NCBI RefSeq assembly: GCF_000154725.1
Contig: NZ_DS544873.1
Location: forward strand, 2,865,397-2,929,396
Source: Kordia algicida OT-1
Lineage (GTDB): Bacteria; Bacteroidota; Bacteroidia; Flavobacteriales; Flavobacteriaceae
Direction: 5' to 3'
DNA: 64,000 nt
The translations under genes were made by a program, and so were the position numbers. This document shows positions 100-28,531 of this stretch, piece after piece; position 1 is the first letter of the stretch; each line of letters starts with the position of its first letter. A model generated the notes under the pieces. That model was not told where the DNA came from. It saw only the letters and a list, made by a program, of their open reading frames with translations, and made no database searches.

Positions 100-127
100 A
101 AAAAAGCCTCTGCAATTGCAGAGGCTT
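100..127 (-). terminator. Intrinsic terminator of a leftward attenuator
   Basis: A perfect palindrome at 104-127 (arms AAGCCTCTGCAA and TTGCAGAGGCTT) is followed on the minus strand by a run of six T. It lies 33 bases beyond the stop codon of the Met/Cys-rich leader ORF, the placement expected for a transcription attenuator. Confidence 0.8.
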
Positions 128-159: not shown

Positions 160-237
160 CTAAATACAATAGTTGTCCCCTGCGGCATCTCTGCTACACA
201 TCATACAACACATCATATTTGAAACTTTATTAAACAT
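160..237 (-). CDS. Met/Cys-rich leader peptide (25 aa)
   Basis: This short ORF runs ATG at 237 to TAG at 160. It carries the run NMMCCMMC near its N-terminus, ten Met and Cys residues in 25 overall, far above chance. A Bacteroidota promoter ends 20 bases upstream and a perfect terminator hairpin lies 33 bases downstream. This is the arrangement of amino-acid attenuators: ribosomes stalling at Met or Cys codons would prevent terminator formation. The regulated gene would be to the left of the window, most likely a methionine or cysteine biosynthesis gene (inference). The peptide itself probably has no function beyond being translated. Confidence 0.72.
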   Translation of the reverse strand: MFNKVSNMMCCMMCSRDAAGDNYCI

Positions 238-355: not shown

Positions 356-385
356 TTTGTTTGTACGAAGATTTTTATACATTTG
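356..385 (+). promoter_or_regulatory. metK promoter
   Basis: TTTG (356-359), 18 bases, then TACATTTG (378-385): an exact match to the Bacteroidota promoter. Transcription would begin just before the riboswitch fold, giving a leader of about 205 bases ahead of metK. Confidence 0.7.
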
Positions 386-390
386 CATCT

Positions 391-520
391 GATTTTTGAG
401 GAGAAATTTGAACTGATTGCAACCTCAAGTGCTGAACTTGTTTCAGTACCTAGTTCACTAAGTCGTGGACTAGATCCTGAAATGAATTCAGGATATTTAA
501 AAAATGCTAAAGCAGTAATT
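391..520 (+). ncRNA. SAM-II-type riboswitch (long-loop form) in the metK leader
   Basis: A first stem pairs TTGAGG (396-401) with CCTCAA (423-428). Its loop carries AATTTGAACTGATTGCAA, close to the conserved SAM-II loop, and the conserved 3' element AATGCTAAAGCAGT is at 503-516. ACTG (412-415) can pair with CAGT (513-516) to form the SAM-II pseudoknot. Between the stem and the 3' element lie about 74 extra bases holding stable hairpins (450-473 and 474-494), as in the long-loop variants reported for Bacteroidota. It sits 80-200 bases ahead of metK, the SAM-making enzyme, so feedback by SAM is the obvious role. How ligand binding controls output (terminator or translation) is not evident. Confidence 0.75.
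474..494 (+). repeat. REP-like hairpin inside the metK riboswitch loop
   Basis: Stem ATCCTGAA / TTCAGGAT with a 5-base loop (ATGAA). The same 8-bp stem with a different 5-base loop occurs at 28511-28531 between etfB and etfA. A second hairpin, CTAGTTCAC / GTGGACTAG with one G-U pair, abuts it at 450-473. Confidence 0.65.
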
Positions 521-596
521 TTATACTTCTTTAGCCGACAAAGCAATCTCTTTTTTATTTTTCCTTTCACTTTAACCATTAAAAAGAAGATTTATT

Positions 597-1853
597 ATGT
601 CATATTTTTTTACCTCTGAATCCGTTTCAGAAGGACATCCAGACAAAGTAGCAGATCAGATTTCTGACGCTTTAATCGATAATTTTTTAGCCTTTGATCC
701 TGAGTCAAAAGTAGCTTGTGAAACCTTAGTTACTACAGGTCAAGTTATTCTTGCAGGAGAAGTAAAATCGAATACTTATTTAGACGTTCAAAAGATTGCT
801 AGAGAAGTAGTTAACAAAATTGGCTATACGAAAAGCGAATATATGTTTGATGGAAATTCTTGTGGTGTTTTATCGGCAATTCACGAGCAATCTGAAGATA
901 TTAATAGAGGTGTTGATAGAGCTACGAAAGAAGAACAAGGTGCTGGTGACCAAGGAATGATGTTTGGCTATGCAACAAAGGAGACAGAAAATTTAATGCC
1001 TTTAGCGTTAGATTTGTCACATTTAATGTTGATTGAATTGGCAGCTTTGCGTAGAGAAAATGAGGATATTACCTATTTACGTCCAGATGCAAAAAGCCAG
1101 GTAACTATTGAATATGATGACAACAATGTACCTTCAAGAGTAGAAGCGATTGTGATTTCTACTCAGCATGATGATTTTGATGAAAGAGATGAAGTAATGT
1201 TGGCTAAAATCCGTAAGGATATTGTTGAGATTTTAATTCCACGTGTAAAGTCAAAATTAAAACCAGAAATTCAAGCATTATTTGGTGATGATATTAAGTA
1301 TCACATCAATCCAACTGGAAAGTTTGTTATTGGTGGACCTCACGGAGATACAGGTTTGACAGGAAGAAAAATTATTGTTGACACGTACGGTGGAAAAGGT
1401 GCGCATGGTGGTGGAGCTTTTTCAGGAAAAGATCCAAGTAAAGTAGATAGAAGTGCAGCGTATGCAACACGTCACGTAGCAAAAAACTTAGTTGCGGCTG
1501 GCGTTGCTGATGAGATTTTAGTACAAGTTTCTTACGCTATTGGAGTGGTTGAACCAATGGGAATTTTTGTAGATACGTATGGAACTGCAAAAGTTGATTT
1601 ATCAGATGGAGAAATTGCAGAGAAAGTAAAAGAGGTATTTGACATGCGTCCTGCGGCGATTGAAAGTCGTTTAAAATTACGCACACCGATGTATAGCGAA
1701 ACAGCGGCTTATGGACATATGGGACGTAAAAACGAAACTGTTTCAAAAACGTTTACAACGCCAAATGGAGAAACAAAAACATTAGATGTTGAGTTATTTA
1801 CTTGGGAAAAACTAGACTACGTAGATAAAGTAAAAACAGCTTTCGGATTGTAA
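597..1853 (+). CDS. metK: S-adenosylmethionine synthase
   Basis: Makes S-adenosylmethionine from ATP and methionine, releasing phosphate and pyrophosphate; cytoplasmic and essential in most bacteria. The N-terminal ATP site GHPDKVADQ is at about 13-21, [12 protein letters not shown] at about 119, and the signature loop [13 protein letters not shown] plus [16 protein letters not shown] near 250-285. At 418 aa it is some 35 longer than the E. coli enzyme, owing to an insert rich in charged residues around 155-200 that is usual in Bacteroidota. The start ATG is preceded by AAAAAGAAG. It has its own promoter and a SAM-II-type riboswitch leader, and a terminator follows directly, so it is a single-gene transcript. 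Confidence 0.97.
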
Positions 1854-2648: not shown

Positions 2649-2671
2649 TTGTACTTTAATTTTTTAAAATA

Positions 2672-2706
2672 AAAAACCGCTTCTATTAGCCCTTGAAGCG
2701 GTTTTT
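2672..2706. terminator. Bidirectional terminator
   Basis: AAAAACCGCTTC / GAAGCGGTTTTT with an 11-base loop; A/T tracts on both sides, so it can stop the barrel-protein transcript from the left and the lipoprotein pair from the right. Confidence 0.8.
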
Positions 2707-2849
2707 ATCATTAAAATATTACCTAATAATCTGATATTTGTTTCTAATAATATTGTAAAGTTGATGATTAACTTTCTATTTGTTAGAAAAAATGGCACAA
2801 AGTGATCTTTTTCAGGTAAAAGAGTGATGATCTGTAGTATAAAAAGACT

Positions 2850-4109: not shown

Positions 4110-5858
4110 ATGATTACAACAAAAACCAAAGATTCAATTACTTTTCATATTGAAACTTTAGAACGACCTGATGATTTGGTAGACGAAAAAGCATTTAGTG
4201 AAATCGCGCAAACCTTTTCTTCAAAAATAGAATACTTACCAAATCCTGATGAGAAATTAATAGCAGGAGGTTCGCATGCGTTTTTATACGGATTGTATCT
4301 AGCATACTCACAACACAGACCATTTACGCTTTCGCCTGATATGATTTGGTTGTTGGTTTTGCAAGGAATTTCAAATCATGTAAATTTTTCCTATCAAGCT
4401 AAAGAAAATCTATTTCCACAGTTAACTAATAAACAGACGATTACCATTGAAAGTAATAATATTTTCCTTGGCGATCCTGAAAGTCCGTGGCACGAAACCA
4501 CAGCACAATTTACCAACCAAATTGAAAAAATTGTGGGTTCGGAGATTATTGCCGATTTACGAGCTGATTTTAGTACTACAACATTAGCTTCAAAAGTAGT
4601 TAGTGAAATTACAATAATGGATGCGTTTAAATCCTATTTTGATTATGATATTGCTGTTTGTGTTTGTGGAATTCCTGAATTAAAACTTGAAGGTTCTGCT
4701 ACCGATTGGAATCGCATGTTAGACAAGTTGGAAATCTTGAAAAAGTATGATATGGAATGGTGGTATGAAGACTTAAAACCCATCATCACAAAAATTAAAG
4801 ATACTGCCGAAGAAATTATAGATAATGAATTTTGGATGCACATTTTTAAAGTTCATACTACGGAAGAATATGGAAATCCGAAGTCTGTTGATGGCTGGAT
4901 AACCAAGTTTTTCCCTTTTGATAATATTGGCTATCGAATTGATTTGAGAAAAATAAAAGGATACGGAATTGATGACCTTTTTGAAAAATTACCGAAGCAA
5001 ATAGTAACTGTGAATTTTAGACATCTGTTATATGACTTACAAGGTAATTTGCTCGAAGAAACAGCCATGGAATATTTGGGTGGCTTTGTCGGGATTTCTC
5101 AACATCACGAAACTCAGTTTTTAAAACCAGAAATCAATTGGATCATTGGTCACCAAACGAAAGAAACGATTACTGATAAAAAAGAAATAGATAAAAATCG
5201 GCTACCTTCAAAGGCATTTCATAATATAAAAATGATTCCCGAAGAAGTTTTTGATGTAAATGAATGGGAATATTTACACTTAGGTTTTACGAACAAGGTT
5301 GTTATTTCAGAACGTGCAAAAGAGCTAAAATTTGAACACTTAACTATTAGTGGAGAAATTAACAGCGAAACTATCAGAAGACTGGAATCGTACTTCGACT
5401 GGACAAAAAAATTCATTACAGTTAATGACAAAAGGCTTGGTGAAGACAGGTTTTCTTCCGAAGAATATCAAGAATATATCCAACAGATCAAACAAAAATA
5501 TGTTCCGAAAACAGGAAAATCAAATTATGTGCAAGGTGAAATGATGCGAACTGTTGAAAAATTGGAAGAAGAAGCTATTCAGCATCAAAATAAAAACTAT
5601 ACTAAAATATGTCATGGACGATTAGCTTCTTTTTTAGATAAATATTTATATGATGAAGATGTTTTTATTGAAATACACCTGACTGAGATCCTCCTTACCT
5701 TAGAAAGATTTAAAAATAAAAATAGATCGCTTAAAGAAATTCAAGATCATGGTTATAGTCTTGCATACGAATATAAGTATATCAAAGAACGAATCGTAGA
5801 ATGGCATTTGCATTATGGTCCAACTAAACTTGAAGAAGATCCGAAGTTATGTCTCTAA
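4110..5858 (+). CDS. DUF4419 domain protein
   Basis: 582 aa, no signal peptide or membrane segment, so probably cytoplasmic. Residues about 45-400 match what I know of DUF4419: the hallmark near 55-90 reads HAFLYGLYLAYSQHRP, then LSPDMIWLLVLQGISNHV, followed by a WW-containing helix (MEWWYEDLKPI) and FFPFD with a GFVG segment. The C-terminal 180 residues (about 400-582) are charged, mostly helical, and not part of the family core as I know it. The family is found in bacteria and fungi and has no known biochemical function. The gene has its own promoter and stands alone. Confidence 0.8.
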   Translation: MITTKTKDSITFHIETLERPDDLVDEKAFSEIAQTFSSKIEYLPNPDEKLIAGGSHAFLYGLYLAYSQHRPFTLSPDMIWLLVLQGISNHVNFSYQAKENLFPQLTNKQTITIESNNIFLGDPESPWHETTAQFTNQIEKIVGSEIIADLRADFSTTTLASKVVSEITIMDAFKSYFDYDIAVCVCGIPELKLEGSATDWNRMLDKLEILKKYDMEWWYEDLKPIITKIKDTAEEIIDNEFWMHIFKVHTTEEYGNPKSVDGWITKFFPFDNIGYRIDLRKIKGYGIDDLFEKLPKQIVTVNFRHLLYDLQGNLLEETAMEYLGGFVGISQHHETQFLKPEINWIIGHQTKETITDKKEIDKNRLPSKAFHNIKMIPEEVFDVNEWEYLHLGFTNKVVISERAKELKFEHLTISGEINSETIRRLESYFDWTKKFITVNDKRLGEDRFSSEEYQEYIQQIKQKYVPKTGKSNYVQGEMMRTVEKLEEEAIQHQNKNYTKICHGRLASFLDKYLYDEDVFIEIHLTEILLTLERFKNKNRSLKEIQDHGYSLAYEYKYIKERIVEWHLHYGPTKLEEDPKLCL

Positions 5859-28510: not shown

Positions 28511-28531
28511 ATCCTGAATCAAGTTCAGGAT
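28511..28531 (+). repeat. REP-like hairpin between etfB and etfA
   Basis: ATCCTGAA / TTCAGGAT with loop TCAAG. The stem is identical to that at 474-494; ATTCTGGA / TCCAGAAT with loop CTTGA (the complement of TCAAG) occurs at 48519-48539. Confidence 0.65.

What the first reader, a model, noticed from the sequence alone, without database searches (positions are those of the whole stretch)
391..520. SAM-II-type riboswitch before metK with a dispersed-repeat hairpin in its loop
The P1 stem, conserved loop and AATGCTAAAGCAG 3' element of SAM-II are readable, but about 74 bases intervene. That insert contains a hairpin whose 8-bp stem is identical to one between etfB and etfA. So a dispersed palindrome seems to have become, or come from, the insertion point of a riboswitch. 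The same intergenic region also carries the leftward Met/Cys attenuator: two RNA controls of one pathway back to back.
Basis: partly seen in the sequence, partly recalled or inferred. Interest (0 to 1): 0.75.

Follow-up and report, generated by a model that had tools for sequence, protein, structure and literature searches.

The report
SAM riboswitch carrying dispersed palindrome hairpins
The RNA switch that probably senses SAM ahead of this bacterium's SAM-making gene has, in a loop that tolerates additions, three hairpins of the same kind as short palindromic repeats scattered through the genomes of its relatives, which suggests that such repeats can become parts of riboswitches.

Summary
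Window 392-520 is a SAM-II riboswitch (RF01726, 42.4 bits, E 5e-6; 1.6 bits under Rfam's cut-off) ahead of metK. The insert is three tandem hairpins, not one, between P1 and the A-rich strand. HP1 and HP3 share an inverted core CTGAA-N5-TTCAG around HP2. That core is dispersed in this genome (45 exact CTGAACTTGWTTCAG, control 0); the two-core arrangement recurs in 83 of 397 family genomes (control 0) and resembles published CGTC-tagged REP dimers. In the genus, five genomes have the long loop and six a single hairpin at the same place. CTGAA/TTCAG is the commonest stem among SAM-II loop hairpins read (27 of 178 loops, 16 genera; null mean 0.27). Downstream RNA complementary to the aptamer strand (at least 8 nt in 116 of 235 loci; 4.2 expected) suggests the expression platform. 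The leftward Met/Cys control is present and double. Best reading: a metK switch, off with SAM, whose loop took up self-folding REP-like elements that leave the aptamer intact. Long-loop SAM-II was known; my searches found no report of the repeat link. SAM binding, direction of change and role of the insert are untested.

The parts
378..385 (+). TACATTTG, a -7 box of the Bacteroidetes type (TAnnTTTG, recalled) about 7 nt before the riboswitch
   Evidence: sequence; ATACATTTGCA is also in the six other leaders that one search shows in the + orientation; promoter consensus recalled, not tested
392..520 (+). SAM-II riboswitch aptamer with long loop
   Evidence: cmscan RF01726, 42.4 bits, cut-off 44, E 5e-6
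397..401 (+). P1 5' arm TGAGG, pairs with 423-427 CCTCA
   Evidence: cmscan alignment; over 235 loci pairs 2 and 3 are changed on both sides in 10 loci each
412..415 (+). pseudoknot 5' strand ACTG, pairs with CAGT 513-516
415..420 (+). GATTGC, aptamer strand complementary to GCAATC 543-548 in the predicted SAM-free fold
423..427 (+). P1 3' arm CCTCA (its CCTC also resembles a tag variant of CGTC-tagged REPs)
   Evidence: tag variants in passages of PMC3733652
429..449 (+). hairpin HP1 GTGCTGAA-CTTGT-TTCAGTAC, dispersed REP-like palindrome
450..473 (+). hairpin HP2 CTAGTTCAC-TAAGTC-GTGGACTAG, middle hairpin
474..494 (+). hairpin HP3 ATCCTGAA-ATGAA-TTCAGGAT, inverted partner of HP1; same 8-bp stem at 28511-28531
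503..515 (+). conserved 3' element AATGCTAAAGCAG
506..535 (+). alternative hairpin GCTAAAGCAGTA/TACTTCTTTAGC that would sequester the 3' pseudoknot strand
   Evidence: the repeat finder I3, 92% over 12 nt; minimum-energy folds
543..548 (+). GCAATC, anti-aptamer sequence complementary to 415-420
   Evidence: present in the 11 genus leaders; family-wide statistic
597..1853 (+). metK, S-adenosylmethionine synthetase, the gene downstream
   Evidence: Pfam S-AdoMet_synt N, M, C
160..237 (-). Met/Cys-rich leader peptide MFNKVSNMMCCMMCSRDAAGDNYCI of the divergent metY-metX-like operon
104..127 (-). intrinsic terminator AAGCCTCTGCAATTGCAGAGGCTT + T tract after the leader peptide
28511..28531 (+). dispersed palindrome ATCCTGAA-TCAAG-TTCAGGAT between etfB and etfA

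Best explanation
The metK leader is a SAM-II riboswitch that lowers metK expression when SAM is plentiful. Its loop between P1 and the A-rich strand has been extended by a REP-dimer-like element: two inverted CTGAA/TTCAG palindromes (HP1, HP3) around a middle hairpin (HP2). The hairpins fold on their own at the open base of P1, so the two halves of the aptamer stay close and the SAM pocket is untouched. Without SAM, downstream GCAATC pairs with the aptamer strand GATTGC, and TACTTCTTTAGC pairs with the 3' pseudoknot strand; SAM binding breaks both. Shown by computation: the riboswitch match, the hairpins, the repeat family, the loop polymorphism and the excess of anti-aptamer complementarity. 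Inferred: SAM binding, the direction of regulation, the switching fold, insertion rather than loss, and neutrality or usefulness of the insert.
For: SAM-II hit, hits in 11 of 11 genus genomes and in 373 of 397 family genomes; metK directly downstream. Insert: the three-hairpin structure keeps 98.3% of pairs over five genomes, with 3 pairs changed on both sides against 1.0 in shuffles (11 of 500 reach it); the single long hairpin keeps 94.6% with 1 such pair. CTGAA-N2-9-TTCAG occurs in 27 of 178 long loops; redrawing pairs on the same predicted structures (500 times) gives 0.27 on average, 2 at most. Dispersed cores: 45 copies in the own genome, control 0. Two-core arrangement: 83 of 397 genomes, 67 of 237 genera, control 0; the one own-genome match is the riboswitch itself. 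177 of 178 long loops fold better than the mean of their shuffles, mean z -3.65. Anti-aptamer complement of at least 8 nt: 116 of 235, expected 4.2 from composition shuffles, reversed control 1 of 235. Minimum-energy folds of the six genus leaders folded share the GATTGC/GCAATC closure and the 3'-strand hairpin.
Against: The window copy scores 1.6 bits under Rfam's cut-off. The riboswitch copy lacks a clean tag: the CCTC at its left end is the P1 arm and lies 2 nt further out than the tag in dispersed copies, and its right end reads ATATTT, not ATGAC. No full-length relative of the insert was found elsewhere in the own genome. Minimum-energy folds of two of the five long loops (G001, G003) are one long hairpin, not three. 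151 of 178 long loops have no exact CTGAA...TTCAG, so the repeat cannot be the general source of loop hairpins. No Y1 transposase was found in the own genome; over 67 genomes its presence is only weakly tied to the two-core element (18 of 30 with, 13 of 37 without; own count). Polarity is not resolved. Covariation in the hairpins could come from the repeat family itself or from DNA-level palindrome correction. Counts over loci are not corrected for relatedness. No intrinsic terminator follows the aptamer on the + strand and no output mechanism is shown.
Confidence: 0.64

Rival explanations
1. The hairpin is an old, lineage-specific accessory stem of flavobacterial SAM-II, and its likeness to the dispersed palindromes is either chance or the reverse flow: riboswitch hairpins seeded the repeats.
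For: 94 of 94 loops of 20-37 nt fold to one hairpin, and 88 of these lack the exact core, so a hairpin at this place is general and not tied to the repeat; all six short-loop congeners have one hairpin there, four of them with the exact core.
Against: CTGAA/TTCAG is in 27 of 178 loops while the next commonest 5' arm 5-mer is in 6, and the null gives 0.27; the two-core arrangement is the same as in dispersed copies. Of 30 own-genome copies read, only the riboswitch itself shows SAM-II flank letters nearby, which speaks against copies having left the riboswitch with their flanks.
Confidence: 0.22
2. The insert is a neutral passenger: a palindrome that landed, or arose, where it does no harm, with no role in switching. 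(This bears on the role of the insert and is compatible with the best explanation.)
For: It sits at the base of P1; match lengths vary within one genus (80-83 against 127-131 nt); the aptamer strands shown for the 11 genus leaders are alike whatever the loop.
Against: Nothing tested here excludes it. Base pairs are kept despite substitutions, but a repeat family or palindrome correction could do that too.
Confidence: 0.45
3. The three hairpins act as a site of their own, for example an RNase or protein binding site, or a pausing element that gives SAM time to bind before the 3' strand is made.
For: One stem sequence is strongly over-represented, not only the hairpin shape, which would suit a protein or polymerase signal.
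Against: 29 of the 40 loops predicted to have two or more hairpins lack the exact core; no protein or pausing data.
Confidence: 0.12
4. The insert folds as one long hairpin (HP1 with HP3), a DNA palindrome prone to deletion, and short forms arise by deletion of its centre.
For: Arms 432-458/465-491 are 78% complementary; the minimum-energy folds of the G001 and G003 loops are the long hairpin; by eye, short loops keep HP1-like 5' and HP3-like 3' flanks, e.g. G010.
Against: Pair counts favour three separate hairpins (98.3% against 94.6%); the own, G002 and G009 loops fold as three.
Confidence: 0.25

Closest known systems
SAM-II riboswitch, long-loop form (Rfam RF01726; 'SAM-II long loops' of Weinberg et al. 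2010, PMC2864571)
   Same: Aptamer core, pseudoknot strands, Bacteroidetes host, long loop; that paper's table lists 'SAM-II long loops' in Bacteroidetes and marine samples (two passages seen).
   Different: The two passages say nothing of what the loops contain and refer to Additional File 1, which I did not see. Here the long loops read hold one to several hairpins, with a repeat-family sequence in 16 genera.
CGTC-tagged REPs and their dimers (Di Nocera et al. 2013, PMC3733652)
   Same: Stem 8-9 bp, loop 4-5 nt, dimers of inverted units, Bacteroidetes among the hosts, tag variants TGTC and CCTC, no associated transposase gene (passages seen).
   Different: The word riboswitch does not occur in its main text. 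The riboswitch copy is inside an aptamer loop and lacks a clean tag; tails here are TCTCA-like rather than CCA.
GTAG REPs with RAYT transposases, and REPINs (passages of PMC3733652; the name REPIN recalled)
   Same: Inverted pairs of short palindromes with a spacer.
   Different: No Y1 transposase found in the own genome and no firm association in relatives.
SAM-II riboswitches of Sinorhizobium meliloti metA/metZ (PMC9373788; start of abstract in search listing)
   Same: SAM-II control of methionine genes.
   Different: There with predicted transcription termination (metZ) or translation control (metA); here no terminator found after the aptamer and a predicted anti-aptamer pairing.

Membership tests
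SAM-II (RF01726) | sequence-structure match over the whole model | tested here: met
   1-60 of 60, 42.4 bits, E 5e-6
SAM-II (RF01726) | score over the curated cut-off (an operational threshold, not a defining feature) | tested here: not met
   42.4 against 44; the core aligns fully, and in the six genus genomes with the short loop the same riboswitch scores 54.8-58.1
SAM-II (RF01726) | P1 stem and pseudoknot ACTG/CAGT | tested here: met
   over 235 loci P1 pairs 2-5 are paired in 232-233 and pair 1 in 158; pseudoknot pairs 2-4 in 235, pair 1 in 204; covariation slight
SAM-II (RF01726) | leader of a SAM or methionine gene | tested here: met
   metK at 597-1853
SAM-II (RF01726) | binds SAM | not testable with these tools
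   needs in-line probing or ITC
CGTC-tagged REP | 8-9 bp stem with 4-5 nt loop | tested here: met
   HP1 and HP3: 8 bp, 5 nt
CGTC-tagged REP | dispersed multicopy repeat | tested here: met
   core in 45 copies in this genome; two-core form in 83 of 397 genomes, control 0
CGTC-tagged REP | CGTC (or TGTC, CCTC) tag at one end | tested here: inconclusive
   CGTC/GACG in 10 of 30 own-genome copies read; of 25 two-core family loci read, 5 have it on both sides and 5 on one, and by eye 10 of the other 15 have TGTC or TGACA on a side; in the riboswitch the CCTC is the P1 arm, 2 nt off; one riboswitch loop (G141) ends in ATGAC
CGTC-tagged REP | unpaired CCA-like tail | tested here: not met
   by eye the tail side reads CCT in the riboswitch and often TCTCA in dispersed copies; so the copy is called REP-like, not a member
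RAYT-driven REPIN | Y1 transposase in the genome | tested here: not met
   PF01797: no match at E 0.01 in the own genome

The most novel reading that the evidence does not exclude
Across Flavobacteriaceae the SAM-II loop is a recurrent capture site for dispersed CTGAA/TTCAG palindromes and their dimers, and the captured elements have been kept as structural modules of the switch, so a repeat family of the kind often seen as selfish DNA supplies riboswitch parts; the P1 arm CCTC may even serve as the element's tag.
Probability: 0.35. Interest if true: 0.75.

Novelty: new variant of a known kind. Interest (0 to 1): 0.52.

Why it matters
It links two known things that I did not find linked in the listings: riboswitch architecture and dispersed palindromic repeats. 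The natural series of loops with no, one, two and three hairpins at one place across a family (and one against three within a genus) makes it directly testable how much a riboswitch loop can grow and whether self-folding insertions are the permitted kind. It also shows that a fixed Rfam cut-off misses likely real switches: 5 of 11 in this genus and 15 of the 373 matching family genomes. The anti-aptamer signal gives a testable mechanism for flavobacterial SAM-II; the passages I saw describe none for Bacteroidetes.

Tried and rejected
RAYT link: Y1 transposase search in the own genome negative at E 0.01; in relatives (E 0.001) 18 of 30 genomes with the two-core element against 13 of 37 without, own genome included, eight genus genomes outside the draw left out (own count); rejected as an explanation of mobility. 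Phage origin of the leader: no match of 391-600 in the phage collection. Intrinsic terminator after the aptamer: none on the + strand in 1-700, so simple termination is unlikely; CTTT/AAAG after the aptamer is weak and not kept (by eye). Hits to SpF36, STnc370, Phe_leader and RefA9 are under their cut-offs; three fall on one terminator-like hairpin within 2656-2756 and Phe_leader on the Met/Cys leader and its terminator; taken as chance. Long single hairpin for the insert: weaker by pair counts than three hairpins, but it is the minimum-energy fold in two of five. Genus tree for polarity: the metK DNA tree puts the one-hairpin G010 outermost (88/93), the five-protein tree is midpoint-rooted and allows either direction; 2 changes on both trees, 1 in 20% and 39% of bootstraps; left open. 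Pseudoknot covariation: too invariant to use.

Rows dropped: of 250 loci read for loops, 11 gave no pattern match and I set aside 4 as spurious matches (L214, L256, L282, L315); 235 were used, 178 with loops of at least 14 nt. For short loops only those loci that the searches returned were read, so the number of hairpin-free loops is not a census. In one search, 5 of 30 family loci were not re-found by my script.

Full report
What is there. The window begins in the gap between a leftward operon and metK. cmscan against Rfam matches SAM-II (RF01726) at 392-520 on the + strand, 42.4 bits (cut-off 44), E 5e-6, over the whole 60-position model. The next gene is metK, 597-1853 (S-AdoMet synthetase domains). 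P1 is TGAGG 397-401 / CCTCA 423-427, the pseudoknot ACTG 412-415 / CAGT 513-516, and the 3' element AATGCTAAAGCAG 503-515. About 71 bases separate P1 from the A-rich strand. They make three hairpins with no spacer: HP1 429-449 (8 bp, loop 5), HP2 450-473 (9 bp, loop 6), HP3 474-494 (8 bp, loop 5); the predicted energy of the loop is -30.5 kcal/mol, z -6.5 against 30 shuffles.

The dispersed repeat. HP1 and HP3 share the core CTGAA-N5-TTCAG. HP3's whole 8-bp stem recurs between etfB and etfA (28511-28531). In the whole genome (5,033,129 bases, one contig) CTGAACTTGWTTCAG occurs 45 times, the riboswitch included, against 0 for the reversed control, and CCTGAA-N2-9-TTCAGG at 14 places against 0. 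Of the 30 copies of the former given as loci, 10 carry CGTC (or GACG on the other side), 1 lies in an open frame of 100 aa or more, and 11 belong to a longer repeat whose right flank is TATTCTTTG. None but the riboswitch itself has SAM-II flank letters nearby. A search with the insert finds no second full-length copy; among the other matches to HP1's 20-mer 2 are exact and 14 have one mismatch.

The two-core arrangement. A pattern for two inverted cores with a spacer (CTGAA-N5-TTCAG-N8-38-GAT-N-CTGAA-N5-TTCAG) matches in 83 of 397 family genomes, 67 of 237 genera, with 0 control matches; I add up 261 matches, some counted on both strands. In the own genome its single match is the riboswitch; in G404 the match C1:522204-522258 lies in that genome's SAM-II hit (C1:522164-522284), and G167's SAM-II loop fits the pattern by reading. 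Dispersed copies often read (C/T)GTCA-n-CTGAA...TTCAG-n-TCTCA...TGAGAT-n-CTGAA...TTCAG-n-TGAC(A/G) by eye. This resembles the CGTC-tagged REPs of Di Nocera et al. 2013 (PMC3733652; passages seen), which have 8-9 bp stems, 4-5 nt loops, tags CGTC, TGTC or CCTC, form inverted dimers, occur in Bacteroidetes and lack a dedicated transposase. Their CCA-like tail is not met here, so I call the element REP-like. No Y1 transposase was found in the own genome.

Congeners. All 11 genus genomes searched have the riboswitch. Five (G000-G003, G009) span 127-131 nt; six (G004-G008, G010) span 80-83 nt and have one hairpin at the same place, with the exact CTGAA...TTCAG core in four (G004, G005, G006, G010) and a TTGAA-type stem in two (G007, G008). 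The three-hairpin structure keeps 98.3% of pairs over the five long loops, with 3 pairs changed on both sides (shuffles 1.0; 11 of 500 reach 3); the rival long hairpin keeps 94.6% with 1, though it is the minimum-energy fold of the G001 and G003 loops. Gain or loss is unresolved: metK DNA puts G010 (one hairpin) outermost at 88/93, but a five-protein tree of the genus is compatible with both.

Family. SAM-II is found at E 0.001 in 373 of 397 family genomes, 358 over the cut-off. Of 235 loops read, 178 are at least 14 nt long; 177 of these fold better than the mean of their shuffles, mean z -3.65; all 94 of 20-37 nt are predicted to form one hairpin, 40 of the longer ones two or more, 11 three or more. 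CTGAA...TTCAG is present in 27 of 178 loops, from 16 genera; redrawing base pairs on the same structures gives a mean of 0.27 and a maximum of 2, and the next commonest 5' arm 5-mer occurs in 6 (genus numbers). The pair just outside that core is kept in 30 of 34 hairpins in six types (shuffles 14.6; 0 of 2000 reach 30). That covariation may be inherited from the repeat family and does not by itself prove selection on the riboswitch RNA. The other 151 loops lack the exact core, so a hairpin is the rule and the repeat one frequent source. These counts are not corrected for relatedness.

How it probably works. The insert lies at the open end of P1, away from the ligand site (recalled from the known SAM-II fold), and self-folding hairpins would keep the two aptamer halves close. 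For the output, the 85 nt after the aptamer hold an exact complement to the aptamer strand of at least 8 nt in 116 of 235 loci (4.2 expected from composition shuffles; 1 of 235 for the reversed control), in 96 of them GTCAAATC with or without one more base, against GATTTGAC; in this genus it is GCAATC (543-548) against GATTGC (415-420), present in the 11 leaders. Minimum-energy folds of the six genus leaders folded agree on this closure and on a hairpin GCTAAAGCAGTA/TACTTCTTTAGC that hides the 3' pseudoknot strand, with the loop hairpins as side branches. So SAM would choose the pseudoknot and its absence the anti-aptamer fold. No terminator was found on the + strand; whether the output is translation or transcription is not shown.

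The other side. Leftward lie a Met/Cys leader peptide (MFNKVSNMMCCMMCSRDAAGDNYCI, 237-160), a terminator (127-104), a second leader peptide (MSEFFQIATIKTTMTICCMMAMCMMCCSQAYYYQKVPDRY), a second terminator, then a Cys/Met-metabolism PLP enzyme (metY-like) and an alpha/beta hydrolase (metX-like by position). Such peptides and terminators are found at both places in 11 of 11 genus genomes. So the gap holds a predicted SAM sensor for metK and two predicted Met/Cys attenuators; the attenuation mechanism is inferred.

Known or new. Long-loop SAM-II was published in 2010 (two passages seen; its Additional File 1 not seen). I found no paper linking riboswitch loops with dispersed palindromes in the listings, which cover only the held open-access library. 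Hence a new variant of a known kind, of moderate interest.

Noticed in passing
window 237-104 (-) and beyond the left end (L064, second peptide and terminator within 4150-4500): Two Met/Cys-rich leader peptides in tandem, each followed by a terminator-like hairpin, ahead of metY- and metX-like genes; found in 11 of 11 genus genomes.
   Followed up: partly
window 543-548; family loci: Widespread anti-aptamer sequence after SAM-II (GTCAAATC or GCAATC), in many other genera next to a small GACG-N4-CGTC hairpin (by eye).
   Followed up: partly
window 535-499 (-): On the opposite strand the hairpin GCTAAAGAAGTA...TACTGCTTTAGC is followed by a T run, a terminator-like site flagged by my scan in 6 of 11 genus genomes; possible stop for antisense transcripts.
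   Followed up: no
own genome, e.g. G000:C1:351900, 1435307, 2162854 (L384, L391, L396): A longer dispersed repeat with the CTGAACTTGATTCAG palindrome at its centre and flanks like AAAAGTTCCCTTTCTTTTGTTGATGCC and TTCTTTGGGTAAGCAAAGAAAA; 11 of the 30 copies read.
   Followed up: no
L310 (G298:C20:302167-302326): A SAM-II loop of 110 nt with two exact CTGAA...TTCAG palindromes and one near copy; the 160-nt match is the longest among the spans listed.
   Followed up: no
L115 (JAFMKE010000067.1): A contig titled as a Verrucomicrobia MAG encodes a MetK 79% identical to this flavobacterial one; perhaps a binning error.
   Followed up: no
window 2656-2756 (-): A terminator-like hairpin (AAACCGCTTC...GAAGCGGTTT + T) that draws three sub-threshold sRNA hits in Rfam.
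   Followed up: no
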